From NCBI GenBank assembly GCA_019638575.1, contig JAHBTN010000002.1, positions 62,001 to 126,000 of the forward strand: 64,000 nucleotides of DNA, given 5' to 3'. The stretch is from Ferruginibacter sp. GTDB taxonomy: Bacteria; Bacteroidota; Bacteroidia; Chitinophagales; Chitinophagaceae. Position 1 is the stretch's first letter; each line of letters begins with the position of its first letter. Below the pieces are notes generated by a model. That model was not told the origin of the DNA and ran no database searches. It was given only the letters and a program-made list of their open reading frames with translations. A program made the translations under genes and the position numbers. This document shows positions 1 through 11,247 of the stretch, piece by piece.

Positions 1-60
1 ATGAACGGTAAAGTGTACCTGCTAAATGAAAAGGGGATTGATGTGTATCAAATAAAATAA
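1..60 (+). CDS. C-terminal end of an unidentified protein (partial)
   Basis: The first 60 bases read as an open frame of 19 codons ending in TAA at 58-60, giving the tail VYLLNEKGIDVYQIK. The gene would enter from the left edge, so nothing can be said about its function. It ends 2 bases before the stop of the convergent gene on the minus strand, which is a normal spacing for convergent neighbours. The in-frame ATG at position 1 is probably internal. It could also be a chance open frame. Confidence 0.4.
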   Translation: MNGKVYLLNEKGIDVYQIK

Positions 61-62
61 AC

Positions 63-581
63 TTATTGGTTCAGTATATCTATAAGTTCTTTATCCCATT
101 TACCTGTTTTGCCATATTCCACCACACGGCCCATTTCTTTTCCGTCTTTCATTACTATAATGGTTGGCACAAGCGTTACATCAAAAGCCTTAGTGATATT
201 GCCCAGCGAATTTTTTGCACGGTTTACACCAAACAGGCTGATGGCATCATCTGCCAAACCGCTTAGTTCTTGCAACTTAAAAAACTTTGGTAAAATAAAT
301 TGTGTATCCTCACACCAGGTACCACCAAAAACAACAAAATGGAATTTACCGTTTGCTCTTTTAAAAGCATTGATGGTTGCCGTATCGGGGTTATAATAAC
401 TTTGGCTGCTTTTGTACCATGCAAAAGCTGTATCATTTTTAAGTAAGTCTTTATTGATGATACCCCTCAGCACTTTCACTTCGGGATGTTTTTCATCCTG
501 GCTCACTTCGTATTGTTCCTGCGCAAAAGCCCTGCCGGCGCCACCTGCAAAAAGCAACAATATCAATAGGTACCTGTTCAT
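63..581 (-). CDS. Exported thioredoxin-fold protein with a single active-site cysteine
   Basis: 172 residues with an N-terminal signal peptide (about 1-20, cleavage after AFA). A thioredoxin-like core follows: a strand leading into GGTWCEDT at 87-93, and the cis-proline loop VPT at 138-140. The active site is W89-C90-E91-D92, so the second cysteine of the usual CXXC pair is replaced. The protein therefore cannot form the normal intramolecular disulfide. It may act as a monothiol reductase, bind a ligand, or be a redox-dead relative. It probably acts in the periplasm. The start at 581 is fixed by the signal peptide. The family assignment to the thioredoxin fold is firm, but the activity is not known. 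Confidence 0.8.
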   Translation of the reverse strand: MNRYLLILLLFAGGAGRAFAQEQYEVSQDEKHPEVKVLRGIINKDLLKNDTAFAWYKSSQSYYNPDTATINAFKRANGKFHFVVFGGTWCEDTQFILPKFFKLQELSGLADDAISLFGVNRAKNSLGNITKAFDVTLVPTIIVMKDGKEMGRVVEYGKTGKWDKELIDILNQ

Positions 582-667
582 TTTAAAATTTTAATAGAAA
601 ATAAATTGTGAGGAGTAAATATCGGTTCAAAAAAAATAACTGCATCCGCAAATATGTTAAACGGAAG

Positions 668-1189
668 TTATAAACCGGCTTTCAGTTCGTTCAAAAATCC
701 TTTCAGTTTCTTTAAAGATTCTATCAGCTCAAATTTTTCTTCGGCCCGTTTGTTTTGTTTTAAAAATTCTTTGGCGCCTTCCATGGTATATTTTCTTTCA
801 CGCAACAAATGGTAAATCAGTTTAAGATTTTTAATATCCTCGGGTCTGAAGAGCCGGTCGCCTTTGCCATTTTTACGGGGTTTTAAAATATCAAATTCGT
901 TTTCCCAAAACCTTATCAGGCTTTGGTTTACCTTAAACATATCGGCCACAATACCAATGGCATAATATTTTTTTTCAAAAAGTATTTCATCGGCCGGTAT
1001 TTCTATAAGGTCGGTGCCGGCATCTTTTTCCTTAAGGCTCATGCGGCCCCTGTTGGTTTTTTTATTATCGGTTTTTGTTTTGATTTTTATTTTGTCGGCA
1101 GGGGGCTTTGTTAAGGTATGTGTTTTGGCAGCCGGTTTATTGTTAACCGGCGTTTCATCAAAATCAAAAGATATCTGTTGTAAAGGCAT
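668..1189 (-). CDS. MerR-type DNA-binding regulator
   Basis: 173 residues. The first 70 or so are low-complexity and rich in Lys and Thr. The winged-helix MerR domain covers about 73-143 (KYYAIGIVADMF, then SLIRFWENEFDILKPRK, then RLFRPEDI). A short C-terminal helix with Glu and Lys could be a dimerisation coiled coil. No cysteines or effector domain follow, so no metal or drug sensing can be inferred. From what I know of Bacteroidota genomes, a MerR-like gene of this type commonly lies next to an M23 peptidase gene. Here the two are separated by an inserted block. The target genes are unknown. Confidence 0.85.
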   Translation of the reverse strand: MPLQQISFDFDETPVNNKPAAKTHTLTKPPADKIKIKTKTDNKKTNRGRMSLKEKDAGTDLIEIPADEILFEKKYYAIGIVADMFKVNQSLIRFWENEFDILKPRKNGKGDRLFRPEDIKNLKLIYHLLRERKYTMEGAKEFLKQNKRAEEKFELIESLKKLKGFLNELKAGL

Positions 1190-1248
1190 AGCTAAAATTA
1201 AAGAAAAGTTTCGGCTTAGTATTGAATTAAAAAAGAAAAACTAATTGT

Positions 1249-1283
1249 CAAAACTTTTGGCACTGCCGGTAGCAACAATTTTT
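1249..1283 (+). repeat. Left copy of 35-bp direct repeat (copy of the M23 gene 3' end)
   Basis: Matches 4590-4624 at 32 of 35 positions in the same orientation; both contain cactgccggtagc. Read on the minus strand it would encode KI-V-ATGSAKSFD, against KI-A-ATGSAKSFD at the true end of the M23 gene. It lies about 60 bp from the start of the MerR gene and marks the left boundary of an AT-rich block that separates the MerR and M23 genes. Confidence 0.8.
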
Positions 1284-1512
1284 TGCTGCCAAAGGTAACC
1301 ACTGTCGCCATAAGCTGTTGCCGCCGTCTGTGTCTTTGACCAACGGCATTGCATACTCTTACATTCAAAATGTAAAAAATAAATATTGATAAGGCATCTA
1401 AAAATGTTGCATTGCTTTATAAACAAATTATGTACTTTGGTACATGGTATTTAGTTATTGAATTTTTTAACCACAGGTTTTATTTAATTGTGAAATTAGT
1501 AGGAGCATAGTA

Positions 1513-1538
1513 CGCCGCTTGTTGAAAACAAGGCGGCG
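1513..1538 (+). terminator. GC-rich hairpin, possible terminator or structured RNA
   Basis: The left arm cgccgcttgtt pairs with aacaaggcggcg around a GAA loop, with one bulged G. A T-rich stretch (aaattttctccttttgctttt) follows. It stands out in AT-rich surroundings. No gene lies directly upstream on the plus strand, so what it would terminate is unclear. Confidence 0.35.
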
Positions 1539-1703
1539 GTAAATTTTCTCCTTTTGCTTTTATTAAATAGAGGTTATACTTAGTAGTTGATATTGTCAAT
1601 TACCTATAAGTGGTATATTTAAAAATACTGAGCAAATAATTTGAAAAACTCATTTTTTTTTTTTTCACTTTGCCTGAATTTTTCAATAACCAAAACTAAC
1701 TTT

Positions 1704-3103
1704 ATGAAAAAGATTATCATTTATTCACTTTGCTTGTCTTCAATTATTGCTTGTAAGAAAACAGATAATTTTTCTGAAGAAAATAAAGTACCAGTTACCA
1801 GTCAGTCTGTTCAAAAACAAATTGAATTTGGCAACAAACAGTTAAAACAAATTACCCAAGGAGTGGCAATGCTGGCAAAAGACAAAGAGTTTATATCATT
1901 TGTACACAAAGAAGTAAAAAAGAAATTTGATGGTGAATATGAAGTATTAATCCAGGATTTACAAAGAAATAGTAATTGGAGCCAAAAAATGGATTTGCCC
2001 ATTATTAACGATGCCCTAAACGCTTTTAAAAATATTGACGGGAGCAATTATTACCCTCAAATTTACATCCCTAAGTTTCAAAATGATGAAGATTTAAAAA
2101 GATAAAAAGTAATGAAGGGGCTACTAATAATGCAGCTGAGGAACAAATTGTATATATTTATTACAGTGGAGATTCAGAAGTTGATTCAGCAACTAATGAT
2201 AATGACAGTTATGCAGGATATATTTTGGATAGTAGCAATCAGTTGGTATATTGGGGAATGGTTAATGAAGAATATGCCAATGAAAATGAAGTTTGGATAA
2301 TTTCTATAAACGAATCTGTAGGTAATGAAGGAAATTTCTGCCCACCTGAAAACATTAATGGAGTTAATCAGTATTGTCCAGAATCACTCAATGGTTGTTG
2401 CGGAACAGGAGGTGGTGGTGGTGGAGATACTCCTTCAGGTTGTAATGGTGATCCAGATTGCGATTCTACTGCCTTAAGTATAGCTTGGCATCCTGACATG
2501 AATTTGCATTATCCTGTTAATTGTAAAATTGACCAAATGCTGGTTAAAGATTATAAGGAGTCTTGGCTTTCAGGTGCATCAGAAGTTTCCATTAAAGCTT
2601 CACTAAATTGCCATAACAATTTAGAAATGGGAAGGCATAGATCTATAGCTGGAAATATGCAATACAAATCGGACCAAACAAGTAATTACTTGGGAAGATT
2701 AATTAGAAAGTTTAAACGAAAAGAAATAAGACATCAAACTATTATATATAATGTTAGTTATTCTTTGCAAACTAGATGGCCAGTTCAATATTATCAATCT
2801 GACCCAATATGGTTTGATTATTTAATTTTTGAAAGAGATGCTTGGCCAGCTGCAAGAAATTTAAGTCCATATGATAATATGTATGGAAGACAAGATTTAT
2901 TAAACGCTCCATTTTCTAATGAATTTTCACCAATTTGGCATTTAACATACAGATCAAATAATAAAAATAATACAACATGGCGCTTTCCATATGCTACTGG
3001 AAGTTTATGCAGTAATATTAATTTGGTTGGTAACCAAAATCAATATTACGCTACAGGTTATGTTAATAATAGTGAAATTAGCTTTAATACCATCGGATAT
3101 TAA
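1704..3103 (+). CDS. Large putative lipoprotein split by a -1 frameshift
   Basis: From ATG 1704 a lipoprotein signal (ends SLCLSSIIAC, Cys about residue 17) leads into 131 residues that stop at TAA 2103-2105. The -1 frame is open without interruption from 2099 to 3103 and continues a similar, polar, Asn-rich protein (KIKSNEGATNNAAEEQIVY, then a Gly/Cys-rich linker CCGTGGGGGGD, then about 230 residues rich in aromatic residues). Joined at TTTAAAA (2093-2099) the product is about 466 residues. I recognise no domain. The second half has no start of its own with a signal peptide. It is either a broken gene (one base lost near an A-run) or is made by programmed frameshifting. The region is visibly AT-rich compared with neighbouring genes. 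Confidence 0.65.
2093..2099 (+). other. Slippery heptamer T TTA AAA at the frame change
   Basis: In the zero frame the codons read GAT TTA AAA AGA TAA. The heptamer has the X XXY YYZ form used for -1 ribosomal slippage, and the stop follows one codon later. Slippage gives exactly the frame that stays open to 3103. I see no strong stem-loop or pseudoknot just downstream, so an indel in the A-run remains possible. Confidence 0.5.
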
Positions 3104-3114
3104 AAACCTTGCAG

Positions 3115-3154
3115 TTAGTATTGCAACTTTAGTTAACTAAAGTTGCAATACTAA
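3115..3154. repeat. Perfect 40-bp palindrome
   Basis: Two 20-base arms (left arm TTAGTATTGCAACTTTAGTT) are exact reverse complements with no spacer, centred on GTTAAC. As RNA it could fold into an 18-bp stem with a 4-base loop, so it may terminate or stabilise transcripts between the split lipoprotein and the first barrel gene. As DNA it is long enough to form a cruciform or to bind a dimeric protein. It is AT-rich and lacks a long T-tract, so it is not a standard terminator. Confidence 0.8.
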
Positions 3155-3174
3155 TTTAAAGAATCATATTCTAT

Positions 3175-3885
3175 ATGTCATTTCTAAGAAATTATGTTTT
3201 TATCATTGCCATATTAGTTCATCATAATAGTTATGGCCAAAAAAAATCTTCGGGTAATATTTTTTTTGAACCCGGTATAGCATACAGGCAGGGGTTATTA
3301 GAGCTTAAAAACTACCCGGTAAGGGGCGGAAGAAGACAAGATGATATGGGTTACCAGTTTGGTGGTATTTCTATGTTAAGCAATGTATTTATGTTAAACC
3401 TGGTTGGCGGATATTCTTTTAATGACAAAAACAGGATACAACTCTCAAATTACTTTTACAAAAACTATTTAGTTACACTTGCTGATTCAATTAATATTCT
3501 AACGGAAAAACTTTATTCATATAAAACTGATATTTTTATTGACTATGTCCATACATTCATTGCCCGAAAGAAAAAGAAATTAATTTTTGAAATTGGTGCT
3601 GGTATTGGAATAATGAATTTAAGTAAATCATTCACCTATATTGATTATGAATATGTTTATGATGAAAACAATAATTATGTAAAGATAAAACGGGAACTTA
3701 CTGAGAATGCCTTTTCTTTCTTTGCTCCTCGTTTAATTGTAGGATTAAAATATAAACATGTCCAATTCCAATTAATAAATCATATCACTCCAGATGATGA
3801 TTTAAACAATAAAATTTCATTTTGGATTGAAGGCAGGCTGCTATATCATATAAAAGTAACCAAAAGAAATAAATTACATAGTTGA
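3175..3885 (+). CDS. Outer-membrane-beta-barrel-like protein, first of a tandem pair
   Basis: 236 residues with a signal peptide (about 1-21, ending SYG). The mature part has alternating strands such as FFEPGIAYRQGLLEL, VDYVHTF-type segments and IFEIGAGIGIMNL, consistent with a small beta-barrel of about 8-10 strands. No catalytic motif is visible. It is clearly paralogous to the next gene: FEPGIAYRQG matches FEPTIETGIAFRPG, and FEIGAGIGIMN matches FELGAGIGYMN. Both genes lie within the accessory block and are AT-rich. The function is unknown. A role in anchoring or exporting the lipoprotein upstream is only a guess from proximity. Confidence 0.6.
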   Translation: MSFLRNYVFIIAILVHHNSYGQKKSSGNIFFEPGIAYRQGLLELKNYPVRGGRRQDDMGYQFGGISMLSNVFMLNLVGGYSFNDKNRIQLSNYFYKNYLVTLADSINILTEKLYSYKTDIFIDYVHTFIARKKKKLIFEIGAGIGIMNLSKSFTYIDYEYVYDENNNYVKIKRELTENAFSFFAPRLIVGLKYKHVQFQLINHITPDDDLNNKISFWIEGRLLYHIKVTKRNKLHS

Positions 3886-3918
3886 TTTTTTATTCAATTT
3901 CACTTTATCTTATTCTTT

Positions 3919-4584
3919 ATGAAAATATTTTTTGTTACCATAATTTTTGTTTTTGGATTTTCATCAGCATATACGCAAAGCAAAATTAAATTTGAACCTA
4001 CTATAGAAACAGGAATTGCTTTCAGGCCTGGTTATATCGAAATGTCAAACTCATCAAAAATACCAGGACAGCCTTATACCACTTATGCCTATAGCAAGGC
4101 GAAGCATTTTAATAATATTAATCTGTCAATTGCTATTCAGCAATATATTCTAAAAAATAGAATAAGCCTTCAACTGGCATCATACTTCAGATATAACCAT
4201 TTGTATTATGGAAAAAATTCCCAGGGCATTTCATCAGCATCCGAAAAAGAATTCAAACGTCTTAAATATGATGTGTTTATTGACGGTCTTTATCATTTTA
4301 AAAAAAGAAAAATAAATTCAATCGGGTTTGAACTTGGTGCAGGAATTGGCTATATGAATTTTGGTACCCAATTTAAAGATTCGGCGATGGTAAATAATAG
4401 ATATATGGAAATAAAGAAAGGGTTTCGTTTTCTTGCTCCACGTTTATTGATAGGCGTCAATAAAAATAATTTTTCATTTTTTACTATAGCTCATGGTACA
4501 CCTGATGCTGACTATGAACCCAATCCAACCATTTGGCTTGAATTTAAATTAGCCTATTCATTCTCTCCTTTCAAAAAAAAATAA
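3919..4584 (+). CDS. Outer-membrane-beta-barrel-like protein, second of a tandem pair
   Basis: 221 residues with a signal peptide (about 1-19, ending SSAYTQ). The pattern is that of the preceding gene: an N-terminal IETGIAFRPGYIEM strand, a basic turn (YHFKKRKINS), a glycine-rich strand FELGAGIGYMNFG, then FLAPRLLIGVNK (compare FFAPRLIVGLKY in the partner). It starts 33 bp after the partner's stop, so the two are probably cotranscribed. Its stop ends at 4584, immediately before the stop codon of the convergent M23 gene at 4585, so the accessory block runs right up to that gene. No domain is recognised. Confidence 0.6.
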   Translation: MKIFFVTIIFVFGFSSAYTQSKIKFEPTIETGIAFRPGYIEMSNSSKIPGQPYTTYAYSKAKHFNNINLSIAIQQYILKNRISLQLASYFRYNHLYYGKNSQGISSASEKEFKRLKYDVFIDGLYHFKKRKINSIGFELGAGIGYMNFGTQFKDSAMVNNRYMEIKKGFRFLAPRLLIGVNKNNFSFFTIAHGTPDADYEPNPTIWLEFKLAYSFSPFKKK

Positions 4585-5556
4585 TTAATCAAAACTTTTA
4601 GCACTGCCGGTAGCGGCAATTTTTAATACACGGTCGTATTGTTCGGCATTAAGGTCGTTATAGAAAAAATAAACAGGGTCAACCGGGTTTCCGTTAATAT
4701 GCACTTCGTAATGCACATGCGGCCCGGTACTTGCGCCGGTGCTACCCACCCATCCAATCACTTCGCCACGATTTACATGCTGGCCAACCTTTACCTTTAT
4801 ACGCACCATGTGCATGTATTCGGTTTCGTAACCATAGCCATGGTTAATAATTACATGGTTGCCCGTGCCGTTACCCGGACCTGCTGTGGTAACAGTACCA
4901 TCGCCGGTGGCATAAATGGGCGTGCCTTGTGGCGCTGTAAAATCAAGCCCGTTGTGCATTTTAGCAATACCGTAAATAGGATGTATCCGCAATCCAAAAC
5001 CACTGGCTATCCTGGTTAGTTGTTTGTTACTGATGGGCTGTATGGCGGGTATGCTGGCAAGTTTGGTTTCCTGGTTATTGATAAGTTTTTCAATAGCATT
5101 ATAACTTTCAACCTCATAAGCCATCCTTGCTTTAATATTATTAAGTGTTTTAGCAATTTCTGCTCCCAGGTCATCACCTTTAATAAGGTTAATCTTATCT
5201 ATCTCTTTTTTCTTTTCAATGGCTTTTGTACGGGCACTATCGGTTAAGGGTGTGGCTTCAAAAATAGAACGGTACACTTCATTATCTCTTTTTTCCAACT
5301 CGGCCATCTGTTGTTGTAATACTTTGGTTGTTGCTGCCAGGGTATTATAATTATCTTTTACGATTTCGTATTTCAATTGGGCTTCTTTATCGGTAGCCCT
5401 GGGAAAAAAATTATTATATAACCAGATGATGATGGCCGATGTAACCAGCGCCGCAGATATAAAACCAAATACCCTAAGCAGTTTCACCCGCAGTGGCGTA
5501 ACCAGCTTTTCATAACGAAGCGAATGGGTGTTATAATAGTATTTGATTTTCTTCAT
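4585..5556 (-). CDS. M23-family (LytM-type) cell-wall peptidase
   Basis: 323 residues from MKKIKYYYNT. A membrane segment covers about 30-50 and a coiled coil about 55-95. The M23 domain covers about 185-300: H201-NGLDF with D205, H249 and the H280-V-H282 motif, which give the usual zinc ligands. It is expected to cut peptidoglycan cross-bridges from the periplasmic face of the inner membrane. Upstream in-frame starts exist at 5607 (MAAKV) and 5652. The promoter-like sequence at 5622-5652 rules out the 5652 start. I prefer 5556 because the protein then begins like the relatives I know. Its last 11 codons are copied at 1249-1283. Confidence 0.85.
   Translation of the reverse strand: MKKIKYYYNTHSLRYEKLVTPLRVKLLRVFGFISAALVTSAIIIWLYNNFFPRATDKEAQLKYEIVKDNYNTLAATTKVLQQQMAELEKRDNEVYRSIFEATPLTDSARTKAIEKKKEIDKINLIKGDDLGAEIAKTLNNIKARMAYEVESYNAIEKLINNQETKLASIPAIQPISNKQLTRIASGFGLRIHPIYGIAKMHNGLDFTAPQGTPIYATGDGTVTTAGPGNGTGNHVIINHGYGYETEYMHMVRIKVKVGQHVNRGEVIGWVGSTGASTGPHVHYEVHINGNPVDPVYFFYNDLNAEQYDRVLKIAATGSAKSFD
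4590..4624 (+). repeat. Right copy of 35-bp direct repeat, inside the M23 gene 3' end
   Basis: This is the native 3' end of the M23 peptidase gene (codons for KIAATGSAKSFD on the minus strand). It matches 1249-1283 with three differences. Two of these change one codon (Ala to Val) and one is silent. A repeat at a gene 3' end, with foreign-looking DNA between the copies, is the geometry left by site-specific integration. Confidence 0.8.
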
Positions 5557-5621
5557 AATCTCGTGGTGGCTTGCCGCTTGAACCTGTTTTATTACCTTTG
5601 CTGCCATTGAACAAAAGTTTA

Positions 5622-5652
5622 CAAATATAGTCCCATATACAACAAAAATCAA
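5622..5652 (-). promoter_or_regulatory. Promoter-like sequence for the M23 peptidase gene
   Basis: On the minus strand TATATTTG (5629 to 5622) fits the Bacteroidota -7 box TAnnTTTG, with TTG (5652 to 5650) 20 bases upstream as a -33 element. Transcription would begin near 5616, which is downstream of the 5652 ATG and upstream of those at 5607 and 5556. Confidence 0.5.
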
Positions 5653-5672
5653 CCCATATAAACATTTGGAAT

Positions 5673-8297
5673 ATGATGACGAGCGCTGACATACGACAAC
5701 AGTTTTTAGATTTTTTTAAATCAAAAGGACATGATATTGTACCATCAGCGCCAATTGTTGTAAAAAACGATCCCACCCTGTTGTTTACAAATGCCGGTAT
5801 GAACCAGTTCAAAGATTATTTCCTGGGTAATAAGCAGGCGCCCAACCCACGGGTAGCCGATACACAAAAATGCCTGCGTGTGAGCGGCAAGCATAATGAT
5901 TTGGAAGAAGTGGGAGTAGATACTTACCACCACACCATGTTTGAAATGCTGGGCAATTGGAGCTTTGGCGATTATTTTAAAAAAGAAGCCATTGCATGGA
6001 GTTGGGAACTGCTTACAGAAGTGTACAAGATTGACAAAGACAGGTTATACGTTACCGTTTTTGAAGGCGATGAAAGCGAAGGGCTGCCAATGGATGAAGA
6101 AGCATTTAACGAATGGAAAAAAGTTATTGAGCCGGGCAGGATATTAAAAGGAAATAAAAAAGATAATTTTTGGGAGATGGGTGATACCGGGCCATGCGGG
6201 CCATGCACCGAGATACATATTGATTGCCGAACCGATGCAGAAAGAAAAAATATAGATGGCGCTTCATTGGTTAACAAAGATCATCCGCAGGTGATAGAGA
6301 TATGGAATAATGTGTTCATACAATTTAACCGAAAAAAAGATGGCAGCCTGGAAGAATTGCCTGCCCGCCATGTAGATACTGGTATGGGCTTTGAAAGGCT
6401 GGTTAGGGTGTTGCAAAACAAATCATCTAATTACGATACAGATGTTTTTACAGGCACTATTACAACTATCGAAAAAATAGTTGGTAAAAAATATGATTAT
6501 AGCGATAGCAAAGAAGCCATCGCCTTTAGGGTAATAGCCGATCATATACGAGCCATCGCTTTTACCATTGCCGATGGGCAGTTGCCATCAAACACCGGCG
6601 CAGGTTATGTTATACGGCGTATCCTCCGCAGAGCAGTACGTTATTATTATTCGTACCTGCATTATAAACAACCGTTGCTATATCAATTACTGCCGGTTAT
6701 TGCCTTGCAGTTCGAAAAGGTTTTTCCCGAACTAAAAAAACAGCAGGATTTTGTTTCTAAAGTAGTGATGGAAGAAGAAACTGCATTTTTAAAAACGGTT
6801 GATAATGGTTTGATGATGCTGGAGCAATCAAACAAAAATATCAGTGGGCAGGAAGCATTTAAACTGTACGATACATTTGGTTTTCCGTTAGACCTAACAA
6901 AACTGGTGGCTGCCGAAAAAGGTTTGCAGGTAGATGAAAAAGGTTTTGAAGATGAAATGCAAAAACAAAAAGAACGCAGCCGGTCTGCATCTGTATTAGA
7001 AACCGAAGACTGGGTAGTACCCGTAAATGATAATAATAATACAACCGGTACCACTCAATCGGTTTTTGTTGGTTACCATACCCTGGAAACAAAAGCACAT
7101 ATTGTAAAATACAGGAAGGTTTCGGGCAAGGGTAAAAAACTTTACCAGTTGGTTTTAAACCAAACTCCTTTTTATGCCGAAAGTGGCGGACAGGTTGGCG
7201 ATACCGGCACACTAACCATTGGCAATACAGAAACAAAAATCATCGATACTAAAAAAGAAAACGACCTTATCATACATTTTGCCGAAAAAATTCCTGATGA
7301 TGTGAGCGGAGAAGTTATTGCAATGGTTGATGCTGAACGTAGAAACAGAATTGCCCTGCACCACAGCGTTACACATCTTATGCATGCTGCATTACGCAAA
7401 GTGCTTGGCACACATGTGGCACAAAAAGGAAGCCTGGTAAATGAAGAGCACCTGCGTTTCGACTTCAGCCATTTTGCAAAAGTTAGCAACGAAGAAATAA
7501 CTGCTGTAGAAAATATGGTAAACGAAAAAATAAGGCAAAACATTCCCATTGTTATAAAAGAAATGCCTAAAGACGAGGCCATTGCCCTGGGCGCCATGGC
7601 TTTGTTTGGTGAAAAATATGGCGACCGTGTACGAGTGGTAATTATGGATGAAAATTATTCTATTGAATTGTGTGGCGGCACACATGCAGGCAGTACCGGC
7701 AACCTTGGCTTTTTTAAGATAACACACGAATCAGCCGTGGCTGCAGGTGTACGCCGGTTAGAGGCAGTTTGTGGCAAGGCAGCAGAAAAATTAGTGCAGG
7801 AAAAATTTGATACGCTGCATGCAATAAGTGAATCATTAAACAGCCCTGCCAACCTGAAAAAAACTGTAGAGCAACTGGCTGCCGAAAAATCATCATTGCA
7901 AAAAAGAATTGAAAGCCTGGAAACCCGCCAACTGGTTGGCATCAGGAATTCACTTTTACACAAAGATGAAATCATCAATAATGTTTCGTTCATCAGCGAT
8001 ATTGTTGAAGTAAGTAATGCAGATGCACTTAAAAAATTATGTTTCGATATAAAACACCATGTACACGATCATCTTGTGGTACTTTGCAGCAATATAGATG
8101 GTAAGGCATTTGTTGCTATTGGTATTTCTGATACGGTGGTAAAAGCAAAAAATCTTGATGCCGGAAAAATCATAAAAGAACACATAGCGCCGCTGATAAA
8201 AGGCGGTGGCGGCGGACAAAAAAACCTGGCCACGGCAGGCGGGCAAAATGTAAGCGCTTTACAGGAAGTTATAGATAAAGTAAAATCATTGTTGTAA
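5673..8297 (+). CDS. alaS: Alanyl-tRNA synthetase
   Basis: 874 residues, the normal bacterial length. It charges tRNA-Ala with alanine in the cytoplasm. The N-terminal class II catalytic domain begins MTSADIRQQFLDFFKSKGH and continues with TNAGMNQFKDYFLG and GNWSFGDYFKKEAI. The editing domain carries H564-xxx-H568 (HSVTH) and C667-GGTH671. The C-terminal C-Ala region ends with a glycine-rich loop (KGGGGGQ) and AGGQN. Two starts are adjacent (ATG 5673 and 5676); homologues fit either. It is divergent from the M23 gene with 116 bp between the chosen starts. No sign of truncation. Confidence 0.97.
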   Translation: MMTSADIRQQFLDFFKSKGHDIVPSAPIVVKNDPTLLFTNAGMNQFKDYFLGNKQAPNPRVADTQKCLRVSGKHNDLEEVGVDTYHHTMFEMLGNWSFGDYFKKEAIAWSWELLTEVYKIDKDRLYVTVFEGDESEGLPMDEEAFNEWKKVIEPGRILKGNKKDNFWEMGDTGPCGPCTEIHIDCRTDAERKNIDGASLVNKDHPQVIEIWNNVFIQFNRKKDGSLEELPARHVDTGMGFERLVRVLQNKSSNYDTDVFTGTITTIEKIVGKKYDYSDSKEAIAFRVIADHIRAIAFTIADGQLPSNTGAGYVIRRILRRAVRYYYSYLHYKQPLLYQLLPVIALQFEKVFPELKKQQDFVSKVVMEEETAFLKTVDNGLMMLEQSNKNISGQEAFKLYDTFGFPLDLTKLVAAEKGLQVDEKGFEDEMQKQKERSRSASVLETEDWVVPVNDNNNTTGTTQSVFVGYHTLETKAHIVKYRKVSGKGKKLYQLVLNQTPFYAESGGQVGDTGTLTIGNTETKIIDTKKENDLIIHFAEKIPDDVSGEVIAMVDAERRNRIALHHSVTHLMHAALRKVLGTHVAQKGSLVNEEHLRFDFSHFAKVSNEEITAVENMVNEKIRQNIPIVIKEMPKDEAIALGAMALFGEKYGDRVRVVIMDENYSIELCGGTHAGSTGNLGFFKITHESAVAAGVRRLEAVCGKAAEKLVQEKFDTLHAISESLNSPANLKKTVEQLAAEKSSLQKRIESLETRQLVGIRNSLLHKDEIINNVSFISDIVEVSNADALKKLCFDIKHHVHDHLVVLCSNIDGKAFVAIGISDTVVKAKNLDAGKIIKEHIAPLIKGGGGGQKNLATAGGQNVSALQEVIDKVKSLL

Positions 8298-8484
8298 AGT
8301 TTTATGTGCAGGATTTATTTTATTCAGCATACCATATATGTATGAATAGTACATGTATTAATGTTCTATTGATTCTTAAGCCCCATTTATCAGTATTATT
8401 TTTTGTGTTTTATAGTTGCTTCAAAAAATTATGTTAAACCAAAAATTTTATCTCCGAAATATTTCGTAATACAAAAAAAGGTTT

Positions 8485-8492
8485 TACATTTG
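8485..8492 (+). promoter_or_regulatory. -7 box TACATTTG upstream of the PDZ protein gene
   Basis: TACATTTG matches TAnnTTTG and lies 35 bases before the start codon of the double-PDZ protein. The -33 region is weak (TTTCG at about 8462). Confidence 0.4.
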
Positions 8493-8527
8493 ACCTACTA
8501 AACATTTCGTACATAAAAAATATAGTC

Positions 8528-9613
8528 ATGAAAAAAATTGTTTTTACGGTTGCCTGTATGCTTGCAGCAGCCTTTACCACTACAGGTTTTGCACAGGATG
8601 GCAAAGCTGATAAGGATAAAAAAGAAACCCAGGAAATAATTATCCGTAAAAAAGGCGATAAGGATACAAAAGTGGTTGTTGAAATTAAAGGTGATAAAAT
8701 TACCATAAACGGAAAACCTTTATCCGAATTTAAAGATGATGAAATAACAGTTAATAAAAGAAATATCATCATTAGGGATGGCAAAGGCAATACAAGGTTT
8801 AGGATGGCGCCCGAAGATTTTGATGGTTTTAGTTTTTGGAATGATGACAGTGATAAGACCACTGCATTTTTAGGTGTTACCACAAGTGTACAAGATGAAG
8901 AAAAGAATGCAGGTGGCGCAAAGATTACGGATATAAGTGAAGGAAGTGCGGCTGAAAAGGCAGGTTTAAAAAAGGGTGATGTTATTGTAAAAATCAATGA
9001 CAAAGAAGTTAAGAACCCTGCAACCTTATCGGAAGTAGTTACCTCTTTTAAACCAAAAGACGATATTACTGTTTATTACGAACGTGATGGAAAAACATCA
9101 TCGGCAAAAGCTACACTTGGCGAGCGCAAGGAATCGAAGTTGATGACCTATTCATTTAACGGGCCCGATGGTATTGCCAGGTCGTTTACCATGCCACGTA
9201 TGAATGGTATAAATGTGTTACCCAATGATGAAATGTGGAACGACAAGGAGTTAGGTGATATGTCACCAAGAGTATGGAGCCCCGGTAAAAATTTTAATTA
9301 CGATTATGAATTTAATAATGATGCATTTCCCCGGCAGCAAAAACTGGGCATTAAAATACAGGATACCGAAGATGGCAAAGGTGTAAAAGTGCTGGATGTA
9401 GATAAAGACTCTCCTGCCGATAAAGCGGGACTTAAAAAAGATGATGTGGTTACAGAAATTGGAGGCAATAAAATAACAAATACCGATGAAGCAAGGATGC
9501 AGTTAAATTTAAACATGGGCAAAAATGCTTACAACATTAAAGCAAAACGTAATGGTAATACTATGAATTTTGATATAAAGATTCCCAAAAAGTTAAAAAC
9601 CGCCAATTTATAA
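8528..9613 (+). CDS. Exported protein with two PDZ domains
   Basis: 361 residues with a signal peptide (about 1-22, ending TTGFAQ). A charged N-terminal part (IIIRKKGDKDTKVVVEIKGD) is followed by a first PDZ domain at about 112-198 (FLGVTTS, SAAEKAGLKKGDVIVKINDK) and a second at about 270-355 (LGIKIQD, SPADKAGLKKDDVVTEIGGN). No protease domain accompanies them, so it is not a DegP-type enzyme. It probably binds exposed C-termini of envelope proteins. The start is supported by the signal peptide and the upstream -7 box. A terminator follows at 9673. Confidence 0.85.
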   Translation: MKKIVFTVACMLAAAFTTTGFAQDGKADKDKKETQEIIIRKKGDKDTKVVVEIKGDKITINGKPLSEFKDDEITVNKRNIIIRDGKGNTRFRMAPEDFDGFSFWNDDSDKTTAFLGVTTSVQDEEKNAGGAKITDISEGSAAEKAGLKKGDVIVKINDKEVKNPATLSEVVTSFKPKDDITVYYERDGKTSSAKATLGERKESKLMTYSFNGPDGIARSFTMPRMNGINVLPNDEMWNDKELGDMSPRVWSPGKNFNYDYEFNNDAFPRQQKLGIKIQDTEDGKGVKVLDVDKDSPADKAGLKKDDVVTEIGGNKITNTDEARMQLNLNMGKNAYNIKAKRNGNTMNFDIKIPKKLKTANL

Positions 9614-9672
9614 TATTGCCACAAAACAATAATTTAAGTTATAGTAATATAAGCCATGAAATAGCATGAGAG

Positions 9673-9703
9673 AATGCCCTGGTAATTTTCCGGGGCATTT
9701 TTG
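9673..9703 (+). terminator. Rho-independent terminator after the PDZ protein gene
   Basis: The stem aatgccctgg / ccggggcatt (one G-T pair) with a 7-base loop is followed by a T-rich tail. It lies 60 bases after the stop codon. Confidence 0.75.
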
Positions 9704-9764
9704 ATTTTTATATTCTCAGCCTTATTACATGATTTTTAAATGAATTATGCACTGTATTCACAAA

Positions 9765-9794
9765 TTGCCCAATGCCTGCCGCCCCTTACCTTTG
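9765..9794 (+). promoter_or_regulatory. Promoter-like sequence directly before gatB
   Basis: TTG at 9765-9767, a 19-base spacer and TACCTTTG at 9787-9794 match the Bacteroidota consensus closely. Transcription would begin about 9798-9801. This lies downstream of the first in-frame ATG (9772) and coincides with the GTG at 9799, so it decides the start of gatB. Confidence 0.6.
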
Positions 9795-9798
9795 CAAA

Positions 9799-11247
9799 GT
9801 GAAAATTAATGACAAATACCAGGCAGTTATAGGATTGGAAGTGCATACACAATTACTTACCAACAGCAAACTATTTTGTAGCGATAGCGCTGCATTCAGC
9901 ACCAATCCCAACACACATATTAGCCCAATAACACTGGCACACCCCGGCACTTTACCAAAAATGAACAGCAAAGCAATTGAGTATGCCATTAAGCTTGGCT
10001 TGGCTTTGCAATGTGATATTACACAACAAAATTATTTTGCCCGCAAAAATTATTTCTACCCCGACCTGCCAAAAGGTTACCAAATATCGCAACATACTAC
10101 CCCCATTTGTAAAAACGGGTTTGTGCCTATTGTGGTTGATGGTGCGGCACGTAATATCAGGCTTAACCGTATCCACATTGAAGAAGATGCCGGTAAGAGT
10201 TTGCATGATATAGATGAAAATTATACCGCCATAGATTTAAACCGTGCCGGAGTTTCCTTGCTTGAAATTGTTAGCGAACCTGATATACATAGCAGTGATG
10301 AAGCCTTTGCTTACATTACCGAACTGCGTAAGTTAGTAACCTGGCTGGGTATTTGCGATGGCAATATGGAAGAAGGCAGCATGCGTTGCGATGCCAATAT
10401 TTCAATACGGCTGAAAGGCGAAACCAAACTGGGCACAAGGGTTGAAGTGAAAAACCTTAACAGCATCCGCAATGTAAAAAGAGCCGTAGATATAGAAGTG
10501 CAACGCCTTATTGGCCTTGTTGAAAATAATCAACCCATCATACAGGAAACCCGAAGCTATGATGCAGACAACAACATCACTTTTTCGTTACGCTCAAAAG
10601 AAGATGCAGATGATTACCGTTATTTTCCCGAACCCGACCTCACTCCATTTCATATAACGGATGATTATCTTACTACTATAAAAAATGCCTTGACGGTTTT
10701 ACCATCAGCTTTAAAAGAGCACTATGTAAATAATTTGAAACTATCTGACTACGATGCTTCTGTTATTTGCGATGACAAAGAGCAGGCAGATTATTTTGAA
10801 GCATTAATTAAACATACAACAAATTATAAGGCTGCTTCAAACTGGATGCTGGGTCCTGTTAAAAGTTATTTAAACGAACACCAAATTACTTACAAACAGT
10901 TTTCTTTACCTGCAAGTAAGCTGGCTGCATTAATAAACCTGGTTGATGAAGGGAAATTGAGTTTCAGCATAGCAGCATCAAAAATTTTTAATGCAGTATT
11001 AAGTAACCCAAACAAGCAACCTTTGCAACTGGCAGAAGATATGAATTTGTTATTAGAGTCTGATAACATTGCAGTAGAACAATGGGTAGATGAAGCAATA
11101 GCTGCTATGCCCGATAAAGTAAAAGAATACCGAATGGGTAAAAAAGGGTTGATAGGGCTTTTTGCCGGACAGGTAAAAAAAATAAGCCGTGGCAAAGCCG
11201 ATATGCAAATAGTGAACACATTATTAGAAAAAAAATTAAACAATTGA
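9799..11247 (+). CDS. gatB: Aspartyl/glutamyl-tRNA(Asn/Gln) amidotransferase subunit B
   Basis: About 482 residues from GTG 9799, the usual family length. With GatA and GatC it converts Glu-tRNA-Gln (and Asp-tRNA-Asn) to the amidated form; GatB binds the tRNA and carries the kinase site. Typical signatures are YQAVIGLEVHTQL near the start, FARKNYFYPDLPKGYQISQ, EEDAGKS, DLNRAGVSLLEIVSEPD and DYRYFPEPDL. The C-terminal YqeY-like tail domain is present. An ATG nine codons upstream (9772) is disfavoured because a strong promoter-like sequence lies across it. The GTG would make the mRNA nearly leaderless. The next gene starts 3 bases after the stop. Confidence 0.93.
   Translation: MKINDKYQAVIGLEVHTQLLTNSKLFCSDSAAFSTNPNTHISPITLAHPGTLPKMNSKAIEYAIKLGLALQCDITQQNYFARKNYFYPDLPKGYQISQHTTPICKNGFVPIVVDGAARNIRLNRIHIEEDAGKSLHDIDENYTAIDLNRAGVSLLEIVSEPDIHSSDEAFAYITELRKLVTWLGICDGNMEEGSMRCDANISIRLKGETKLGTRVEVKNLNSIRNVKRAVDIEVQRLIGLVENNQPIIQETRSYDADNNITFSLRSKEDADDYRYFPEPDLTPFHITDDYLTTIKNALTVLPSALKEHYVNNLKLSDYDASVICDDKEQADYFEALIKHTTNYKAASNWMLGPVKSYLNEHQITYKQFSLPASKLAALINLVDEGKLSFSIAASKIFNAVLSNPNKQPLQLAEDMNLLLESDNIAVEQWVDEAIAAMPDKVKEYRMGKKGLIGLFAGQVKKISRGKADMQIVNTLLEKKLNN

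What the first reader, a model, noticed from the sequence alone, without database searches (positions are those of the whole stretch)
1249..4624. A 3.3-kb accessory block inserted at the 3' end of the M23 peptidase gene, with a duplicated gene end
A 35-bp direct repeat (32 identical) flanks an AT-rich block between the MerR and M23 genes, which I expect to be neighbours. The right copy is the native last codons of the M23 gene; the left copy lies alone at the far edge. Reconstitution of a gene's 3' end with a duplicate at the other boundary is the classic result of site-specific integration, yet no integrase is present. The block carries only a lipoprotein and two barrel-like proteins, so it may be a small mobilised cassette or a remnant.
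Basis: partly seen in the sequence, partly recalled or inferred. Interest (0 to 1): 0.75.

Follow-up and report, generated by a model that had tools for sequence, protein, structure and literature searches.

The report
Gene block inserted duplicating gene's end
A small set of foreign outer-membrane-type genes has been inserted right behind a cell-wall enzyme gene, leaving a spare copy of that gene's last few codons on the far side, and relatives of the same gene set sit behind other genes in other bacteria with the same kind of scar, so this looks like a recurring way of gaining genes rather than a classic integrating element.

Summary
A close relative (G072, flanks 92-93% identical DNA) has the empty site: window 1-1215 and 4577-9000 align side by side and overlap by 26 bp. 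The inserted ~3.36 kb carries a frameshifted lipoprotein gene and two barrel-like genes, flanked by a 36-bp copy of the M23 3' end (33/36); a third, decayed copy abuts MerR (tentative).

'Site-specific integration' is not supported. Homologous lipoprotein+barrel pairs lie at other, unrelated gene ends with other duplications: behind an M28 peptidase in G043 (128 nt, 85%) and behind a 129-aa gene in a Bacteroidales (85-nt gene end inside a 372-nt repeat). Two RelBE-like pairs show the same scar (108 nt; 36 nt). No recombinase was recognised in the block. G070 holds a homologous block at the same M23 site.

This matches 'insertion with long target duplication', described for restriction-modification genes in Helicobacter pylori. 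Likeliest route, unproven: incoming DNA carrying gene end plus cargo recombined once, by homology, in the gene end. A transposition-like route is not excluded; 9 of 14 cassettes show no flanking repeat. New variant of a known kind; interest moderate.

The parts
668..1189 (-). MerR-family regulator gene, native left neighbour
   Evidence: Pfam MerR_1 1.4e-17; next to M23 in 38 of 39 fetched relatives' loci
1190..1215 (-). Tentative: truncated, decayed native copy of the M23 3' end abutting MerR
   Evidence: Homology to the empty site of G072 runs to 1215 and reaches into the M23 stop and last codons, 14 of 18 bases there; 17 of 24 bases identical to the G014 empty site, reached by 3 of 625 ATG-anchored controls, two of which are this sequence and the G070 one themselves
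1248..1283 (-). Orphan copy of the last codons of the M23 gene (36 bp)
   Evidence: 33/36 identical to 4589-4624
1284..1703 (.). Left spacer of the block; pieces 1302-1365, 1399-1494 and 1509-1543 recur at one locus on contig C34
1704..2105 (+). First part of a frameshifted lipoprotein gene
   Evidence: 66% identical to the G043 lipoprotein over 119 aa; no Pfam family
2225..3103 (+). Second part of the same lipoprotein gene, other frame
   Evidence: 53% identical to the G070 and 50% to the G043 lipoprotein; single 452-aa frame in G043
3108..3161 (.). Inverted repeat, 27-nt arms, no loop, between lipoprotein and first barrel
   Evidence: 89% complementary
3175..3885 (+). Barrel-like protein B3, nearest to the G070 barrel
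   Evidence: 40% to the G070 barrel, 29% to the G043 barrel; no Pfam family
3919..4584 (+). Barrel-like protein B4, nearest to the G043 barrel; its stop codon abuts the M23 stop
   Evidence: 54% to the G043 barrel; HP_OMP E 5e-4, 20.6 bits, just below the cut-off of 21
4585..4624 (-). Attached 3' end of the M23 gene (second copy of the repeat, with the stop codon)
4585..5607 (-). M23 peptidase gene (target gene)
   Evidence: Peptidase_M23 9.6e-36
1216..4576 (.). DNA absent from the empty site of G072, by alignment ends (includes the orphan copy 1248-1283)

Best explanation
A foreign gene block (lipoprotein + two barrel-like proteins) was inserted at the stop codon of the M23 gene, and the last ~36 bp of M23 exist twice, so M23 stayed whole and a displaced copy of its end remained on the MerR side. 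Shown: the empty site, the duplication, and homologous gene pairs at other gene ends with other duplications. Inferred: it belongs to the class 'insertion with long target duplication', and the duplication arose because incoming DNA that carried a gene end plus cargo recombined once by homology in that gene end (circularised fragment by single crossover, or linear fragment with homology at one end and an illegitimate join at the other). No dedicated integrase is needed; gene ends may be favoured because there the duplication leaves the target gene intact. Insertion with duplication of the gene end: about 0.9. The homology-anchored route: about 0.45.
For: Empty site in G072 with 26-bp overlap of the flanks, and in G092 with 20 bp. 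The block's proteins are absent from 39 of 39 fetched M23 loci; the lipoprotein is in 3 of 93 genus genomes. Homologous pair behind M28 in G043 with a 128-nt, 85% copy of the M28 end; the gene beyond that copy lies within 1.5 kb of M28 in 14 of 29 relatives' M28 loci, so there too two old neighbours were parted. Distant pair in a Bacteroidales behind a 129-aa gene, the last 85 nt of that gene (93%) recurring 8 bp behind the barrel stop. RelBE-like pairs with the same scar: G043 803-aa gene, 108 nt, and G017 regulator gene, 36 nt at 97%. Flanking direct repeats: 5 of 14 cassettes against 5 of 427 control gene pairs; without the window 4 of 13, p = 5e-5. The 20 differences between the G043 M28 copies lean to third codon positions (5, 4, 11). 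In E. coli, 56 of 60 Lac-minus clones from a fragment carrying a gene end gave the PCR product that marks a gene-end duplication; 14 sequenced had 109-950 bp, explained there by single crossover of a circular molecule (PMC3240628, passages).
Against: The third-position excess is modest. In G043 the orphan of the 803-aa gene is closer to relative G021 (92/102) than the attached end is (84/102), and for M28 the reverse holds (113/132 attached, 104/132 orphan): no consistent sign of which copy is foreign. No donor genome with gene end + cargo and no orphan was found. 9 of 14 lipoprotein-barrel cassettes show no flanking repeat by the test used. The repeats at L241, and partly L246 and L244, may be dispersed repeats. 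No empty site was shown for the 803-aa gene or the G017 regulator or sought for L244.
Confidence: 0.55

Rival explanations
1. Transposition-like insertion with long target duplication: the block enters a staggered break, fill-in copies tens to hundreds of bp of target, and both copies are identical at birth. Mainly events that leave the gene whole survive.
For: Variable target copies in unrelated sequences fit what is said of restriction-modification genes (passages in PMC3874152 and PMC1643837). The G017 copies are 97% identical, and a stretch of about 150 bp inside the Bacteroidales repeat is identical.
Against: In 4 of 5 gene-end cases (M23, M28, 803-aa, G017 regulator) the repeat ends within 7 bp of the stop codon, which a random stagger would not require. 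No Ku family match in 7 of 7 genomes searched, so Ku-type end joining is unlikely there.
Confidence: 0.27
2. Site-specific integration by an integrase acting in trans, with attL and attR made of the M23 3' end.
For: Gene end kept, duplicate on the far side, the same site occupied in G000 and G070 with the barrel stop abutting the M23 stop in both, and possible precise loss in close relatives.
Against: Unrelated targets for homologous cargo, repeat length from 36 to 128 nt and more, no shared core seen by eye, no integrase match among the block's frames.
Confidence: 0.08
3. The block is old, already in the ancestor of G000, G072, G014 and G070, and was lost by recombination between the repeats in G072 and G014. 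This concerns its age, not its nature.
For: G070 has a homologous block (lipoprotein and one barrel) at the same junction and a decayed M23-like end at the native 8-bp spacing from MerR. The rpoB tree groups G000 with G014 (100/97) and both with G070 (96/93). Recombination between the repeats would restore the empty site.
Against: G072, G014, G009 and G092 are all empty, so several losses are needed; transfer from a G070-like donor is as simple. G072, G009 and G092 are not in the rpoB tree.
Confidence: 0.1

Closest known systems
Insertion with long target duplication of restriction-modification genes, Helicobacter pylori (Nobusato et al. 2000; Furuta et al. 2010; neither was read, both seen only as cited in passages of PMC1643837, PMC3874152, PMC3031569, PMC3154945)
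   Same: Insertion found against a related genome without it; long and variable direct target copies; genes that move without being part of a known element
   Different: Cargo here is a lipoprotein + barrel pair (or RelBE-like pairs), in Bacteroidota; the copies seen here are mostly gene 3' ends that keep the target gene whole
Homology-facilitated illegitimate recombination, and single-crossover gene-end duplication, in E. coli (PMC3240628, abstract and passages)
   Same: Incoming DNA with homology to one gene end integrates and leaves a duplicated gene end (109-950 bp in 14 sequenced clones)
   Different: Laboratory plasmid; here natural cargo and no known donor
Sequential displacement of type VI effector 3' ends in Vibrio cholerae and strings of orphaned 3' regions of Rhs loci (PMC5361080, passages)
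   Same: New module behind a conserved upstream part, old gene end shifted downstream
   Different: There the gene end itself is exchanged; here the M23 and M28 ends are conserved and the cargo is separate
Genomic islands at gene 3' ends (dusA, trmE; PMC8409611, title and start of abstract in a listing)
   Same: Integration at the 3' end of a gene
   Different: Fixed target and integrase (recalled); neither was found here

Membership tests
Insertion with long target duplication | Empty site in a close relative | tested here: met
   G072 and G092 for the window's site
Insertion with long target duplication | Direct copy of target DNA, tens to hundreds of bp, variable between insertions | tested here: met
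   36 bp in the window; 128, 108, 85 and 36 nt elsewhere; but 9 of 14 cassettes show none
Insertion with long target duplication | Unrelated target sequences | tested here: met
   M23, M28, 129-aa gene, 803-aa gene and regulator gene ends, compared by eye
Insertion with long target duplication | Copies identical at birth (true target duplication) | tested here: inconclusive
   Divergent copies with mixed affinity; near-identical in G017 and in part of L244
Insertion with long target duplication | Restriction-modification cargo, as in the published cases | tested here: not met
   No such family among the block's frames in Pfam; no PADLOC match for the cargo proteins given
Integrase-driven genomic island | Integrase gene in the element | tested here: not met
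   No such Pfam match for the four block frames; the rest of the window was not scanned for one
Integrase-driven genomic island | One fixed attachment site for related elements | tested here: not met
   Homologous cargo at M23, M28 and a third gene
Integron gene cassette | attC site and integron integrase | not tested
   No attC model was run; only hairpin-like repeats were noted
Single-crossover / one-sided homologous integration | RecA dependence; donor with gene end + cargo | not testable with these tools
   Needs experiment; no donor genome found

The most novel reading that the evidence does not exclude
The lipoprotein + barrel pair is itself a mobile gene unit of Bacteroidota with an unknown, transposase-free insertion route that selects gene 3' ends and keeps them whole, using the same gene end more than once (two displaced ends, and barrels of two lineages, in the window block).
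Probability: 0.12. Interest if true: 0.8.

Novelty: new variant of a known kind. Interest (0 to 1): 0.5.

Why it matters
It extends insertion with long target duplication, known to me from restriction-modification genes of Helicobacter pylori, to other cargo and another phylum, and offers a simple scar (a displaced gene 3' end behind a cargo) by which gene gain without a recognised transposase could be counted in genomes. It also marks an undescribed lipoprotein-barrel gene pair as a recurrently transferred cargo.

Tried and rejected
Dispersed repeat: rejected for the M23 end, the 36-mer occurs only twice in 463 kb. IS or composite transposon: no such gene recognised among the block's frames. 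Site-specific integrase: see rivals. Cargo function: no Pfam, NCBIfam or PADLOC family above cut-off for the proteins given, except the G043 barrel, which just passes HP_OMP (21.3 bits, cut-off 21), and no convincing PDB sequence match for the lipoprotein.

Scans: of 8 gene-3'-end hits among 1022 ORFs (a 12-kb overlap is counted twice) I accept 3 (M23, M28, 803-aa). The other 5: two in repeat-rich proteins, one ORF in a non-coding repeat, one tandem paralogue pair, one 22-nt match 10.8 kb away. The gene-5'-end control gave 11 rows from 8 genes among 1021. Read: three paralogue pairs, a repeat protein, a hairpin, an intergenic repeat, a short match inside another ORF, and one ambiguous case (contig C12 150909: a 31-bp exact and a 29-nt copy upstream). 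Scanning 786 ORFs of part of the other loci (those of 2500 bp or more, several groups left out) gave 14 rows: repeats of the three cases, two new ones that I accept (L244, L280), and rows that I do not count: L127 (two rows, ribosomal-protein neighbours by eye), L119/L240 (one locus twice, near-tandem repeat), L213 (33 nt around a hairpin, no cargo), and in L244 a 16-nt match and a 120-nt repeat. Seventeen later loci (67 ORFs) showed only the G017 case again.

Rows dropped: loci L237-L240 repeat L068, L112, L118 and L119; L247, L248, L249 and L251 were left out of the 14 cassettes for short flanks or no barrel (L247 showed no repeat). The same-locus control gave 2 of 33. In one search my query for the second lipoprotein part was in a wrong frame with stops; the lipoprotein was searched again with the G043 homologue. 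Of the 625 controls, 3 reach 17 of 24; two of these are the tested sequences, so 1 of 623 others.

Full report
What is there. The 35-bp repeat is real and beyond chance. The right copy is the end of the M23 gene; the left copy lies about 60 bp from the start of MerR. Between them are a lipoprotein gene broken by a frameshift (1704-2105, 2225-3103), two barrel-like genes (3175-3885, 3919-4584), and a left spacer with pieces that recur on contig C34.

Empty site. The lipoprotein is in 3 of 93 genus genomes: G000 (the window's), G043, G070, and in 5 of 394 family genomes sampled, a sample without G043. I fetched the M23 locus of 39 of the 57 genus genomes with an M23 match, G000 being one of the 57. 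MerR is on the contig in 38 of 39; none of the 39 has the block's proteins; in 37 of 38 the gap between the two protein matches is at most 322 nt, and G050 has a different insert of 1.95 kb. The nearest genome found, G072 (M23 97% identical), aligns at 92-93% on both sides: window 1-1215 to L297 5633-6846 and 4577-9000 to 6821-11222, overlapping by 26 bp. G092 (72-77% identical DNA) is also empty, with 20 bp of overlap. So the block is an insertion and the overlap is the duplicated M23 end.

Three copies of the gene end. In the empty site the M23 stop stands a short spacer away from the MerR start. In the window the stretch next to MerR still aligns to the spacer and the first 18 bases of the M23 end, with 4 mismatches; then comes the full 36-bp copy, then the block, then the attached end. 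G070 holds a lipoprotein and one barrel at the same site, with barrel stop abutting M23 stop and a decayed M23-like end at the native spacing. The ATG-anchored match of both decayed copies (17 of 24 bases) is reached by 3 of 625 controls, two of them these sequences themselves. I read this as two rounds of displacement, tentatively. B3 is nearest to the G070 barrel (40%) and B4 to the G043 barrel (54%), which fits a composite block.

The same cargo elsewhere. In G043 (contig length equal to JABFRP010000002.1, titled Ferruginibacter sp.) the pair sits behind an M28 peptidase gene, in the other orientation relative to the host gene, with a 128-nt, 85% copy of the M28 end on the far side. The gene beyond that copy (L068 9619-10374) lies within 1.5 kb of M28 in 14 of 29 other M28 loci, so the G043 block parts old neighbours. 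In a Bacteroidales MAG (L244) a distant pair sits behind a 129-aa gene; the last 85 nt of that gene recur behind the barrel, inside a 372-nt repeat at 85%. L246 has a 330-nt repeat at 80%, not at a gene end; L241 has a 41-nt repeat that may be dispersed.

Other cargo, same scar. In G043 a RelB/RelE-like pair (Pfam matches below the cut-offs) lies behind an 803-aa gene with a 108-nt, 79% copy of its end. In none of the other loci of this gene that I held was the following gene found, so no empty site is shown. In G017 a pair whose antitoxin is 29% identical to that one lies behind a response-regulator-like gene (name recalled, not searched) with a 36-nt, 97% copy; there too the following gene was not found behind relatives of the regulator (6 loci).

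How unusual. Flanking direct repeats (E up to 1e-4, 1.5 kb each side): 5 of 14 lipoprotein-barrel cassettes; in 429 same-strand gene pairs of 1.24 Mb, 7, of which two are the window and G043 cassettes, so 5 of 427. Fisher p = 3e-6, and 5e-5 without the window, which was picked for its repeat. The same-locus control is 2 of 33. The controls come mostly from one genus, and some repeats may be dispersed, so this is support, not proof. Counting gene-end copies only, 3 of 14 (window, G043, L244).

Mechanism. Targets are unrelated and lengths vary, which speaks against one site-specific recombinase. Repeats end within 7 bp of the stop codon in four of five gene-end cases. A single homologous crossover of DNA carrying gene end + cargo would give this picture, and in E. 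coli gene-end duplications of 109-950 bp were explained so (PMC3240628, passages). For Vibrio effectors a similar displacement was proposed (PMC5361080, passages). A transposition-like insertion with long target duplication (passages citing Nobusato 2000 and Furuta 2010) remains possible. Sequence affinity of the copies does not decide. No Ku match in 7 of 7 genomes; the same search rang in 1 of 14 control genomes.

Known or new. The search 'long target duplication' listed 19 of 19 papers; two related term sets listed 15 of 56 and 6 of 6, and two on this genus or cargo 10 of 263 and 2 of 2. In titles and starts of abstracts, and in passages of seven papers, I saw no case with this cargo. The library lacks most subscription papers. 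I therefore call it a new variant of a known kind. What the cargo does is unknown.

Noticed in passing
L081 (G050) 3189-5139: A different 1.95-kb insert in the same M23-MerR gap, with several reading frames by eye; the gene-end scan reported no duplicated M23 end there.
   Followed up: partly
L172 10640-14588 (G043 contig C1): RelBE-like pair between an 803-aa gene and a 108-nt copy of its 3' end; the toxin frame is interrupted.
   Followed up: yes
L280 692-2764 (G017): RelBE-like pair between a regulator gene and a 36-nt, 97% copy of its 3' end.
   Followed up: partly
L006 8658-9284 (G000 contig C34): A small two-gene pair, by eye ParDE-like, bounded on both sides by the same ~30-bp hairpin that lies once in the window block at 1509-1543.
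   Followed up: partly
window 3108-3161: Long inverted repeat without loop between the lipoprotein and first barrel genes.
   Followed up: no
L213 about 1449-1498 (G069): 33-nt near-copy of the 803-aa gene's end just behind the gene, beyond a perfect hairpin and without cargo.
   Followed up: no
G000 contig C12 150690-150940 (outside the window): 31-bp exact and 29-nt copies of a 129-aa gene's start upstream of it.
   Followed up: no
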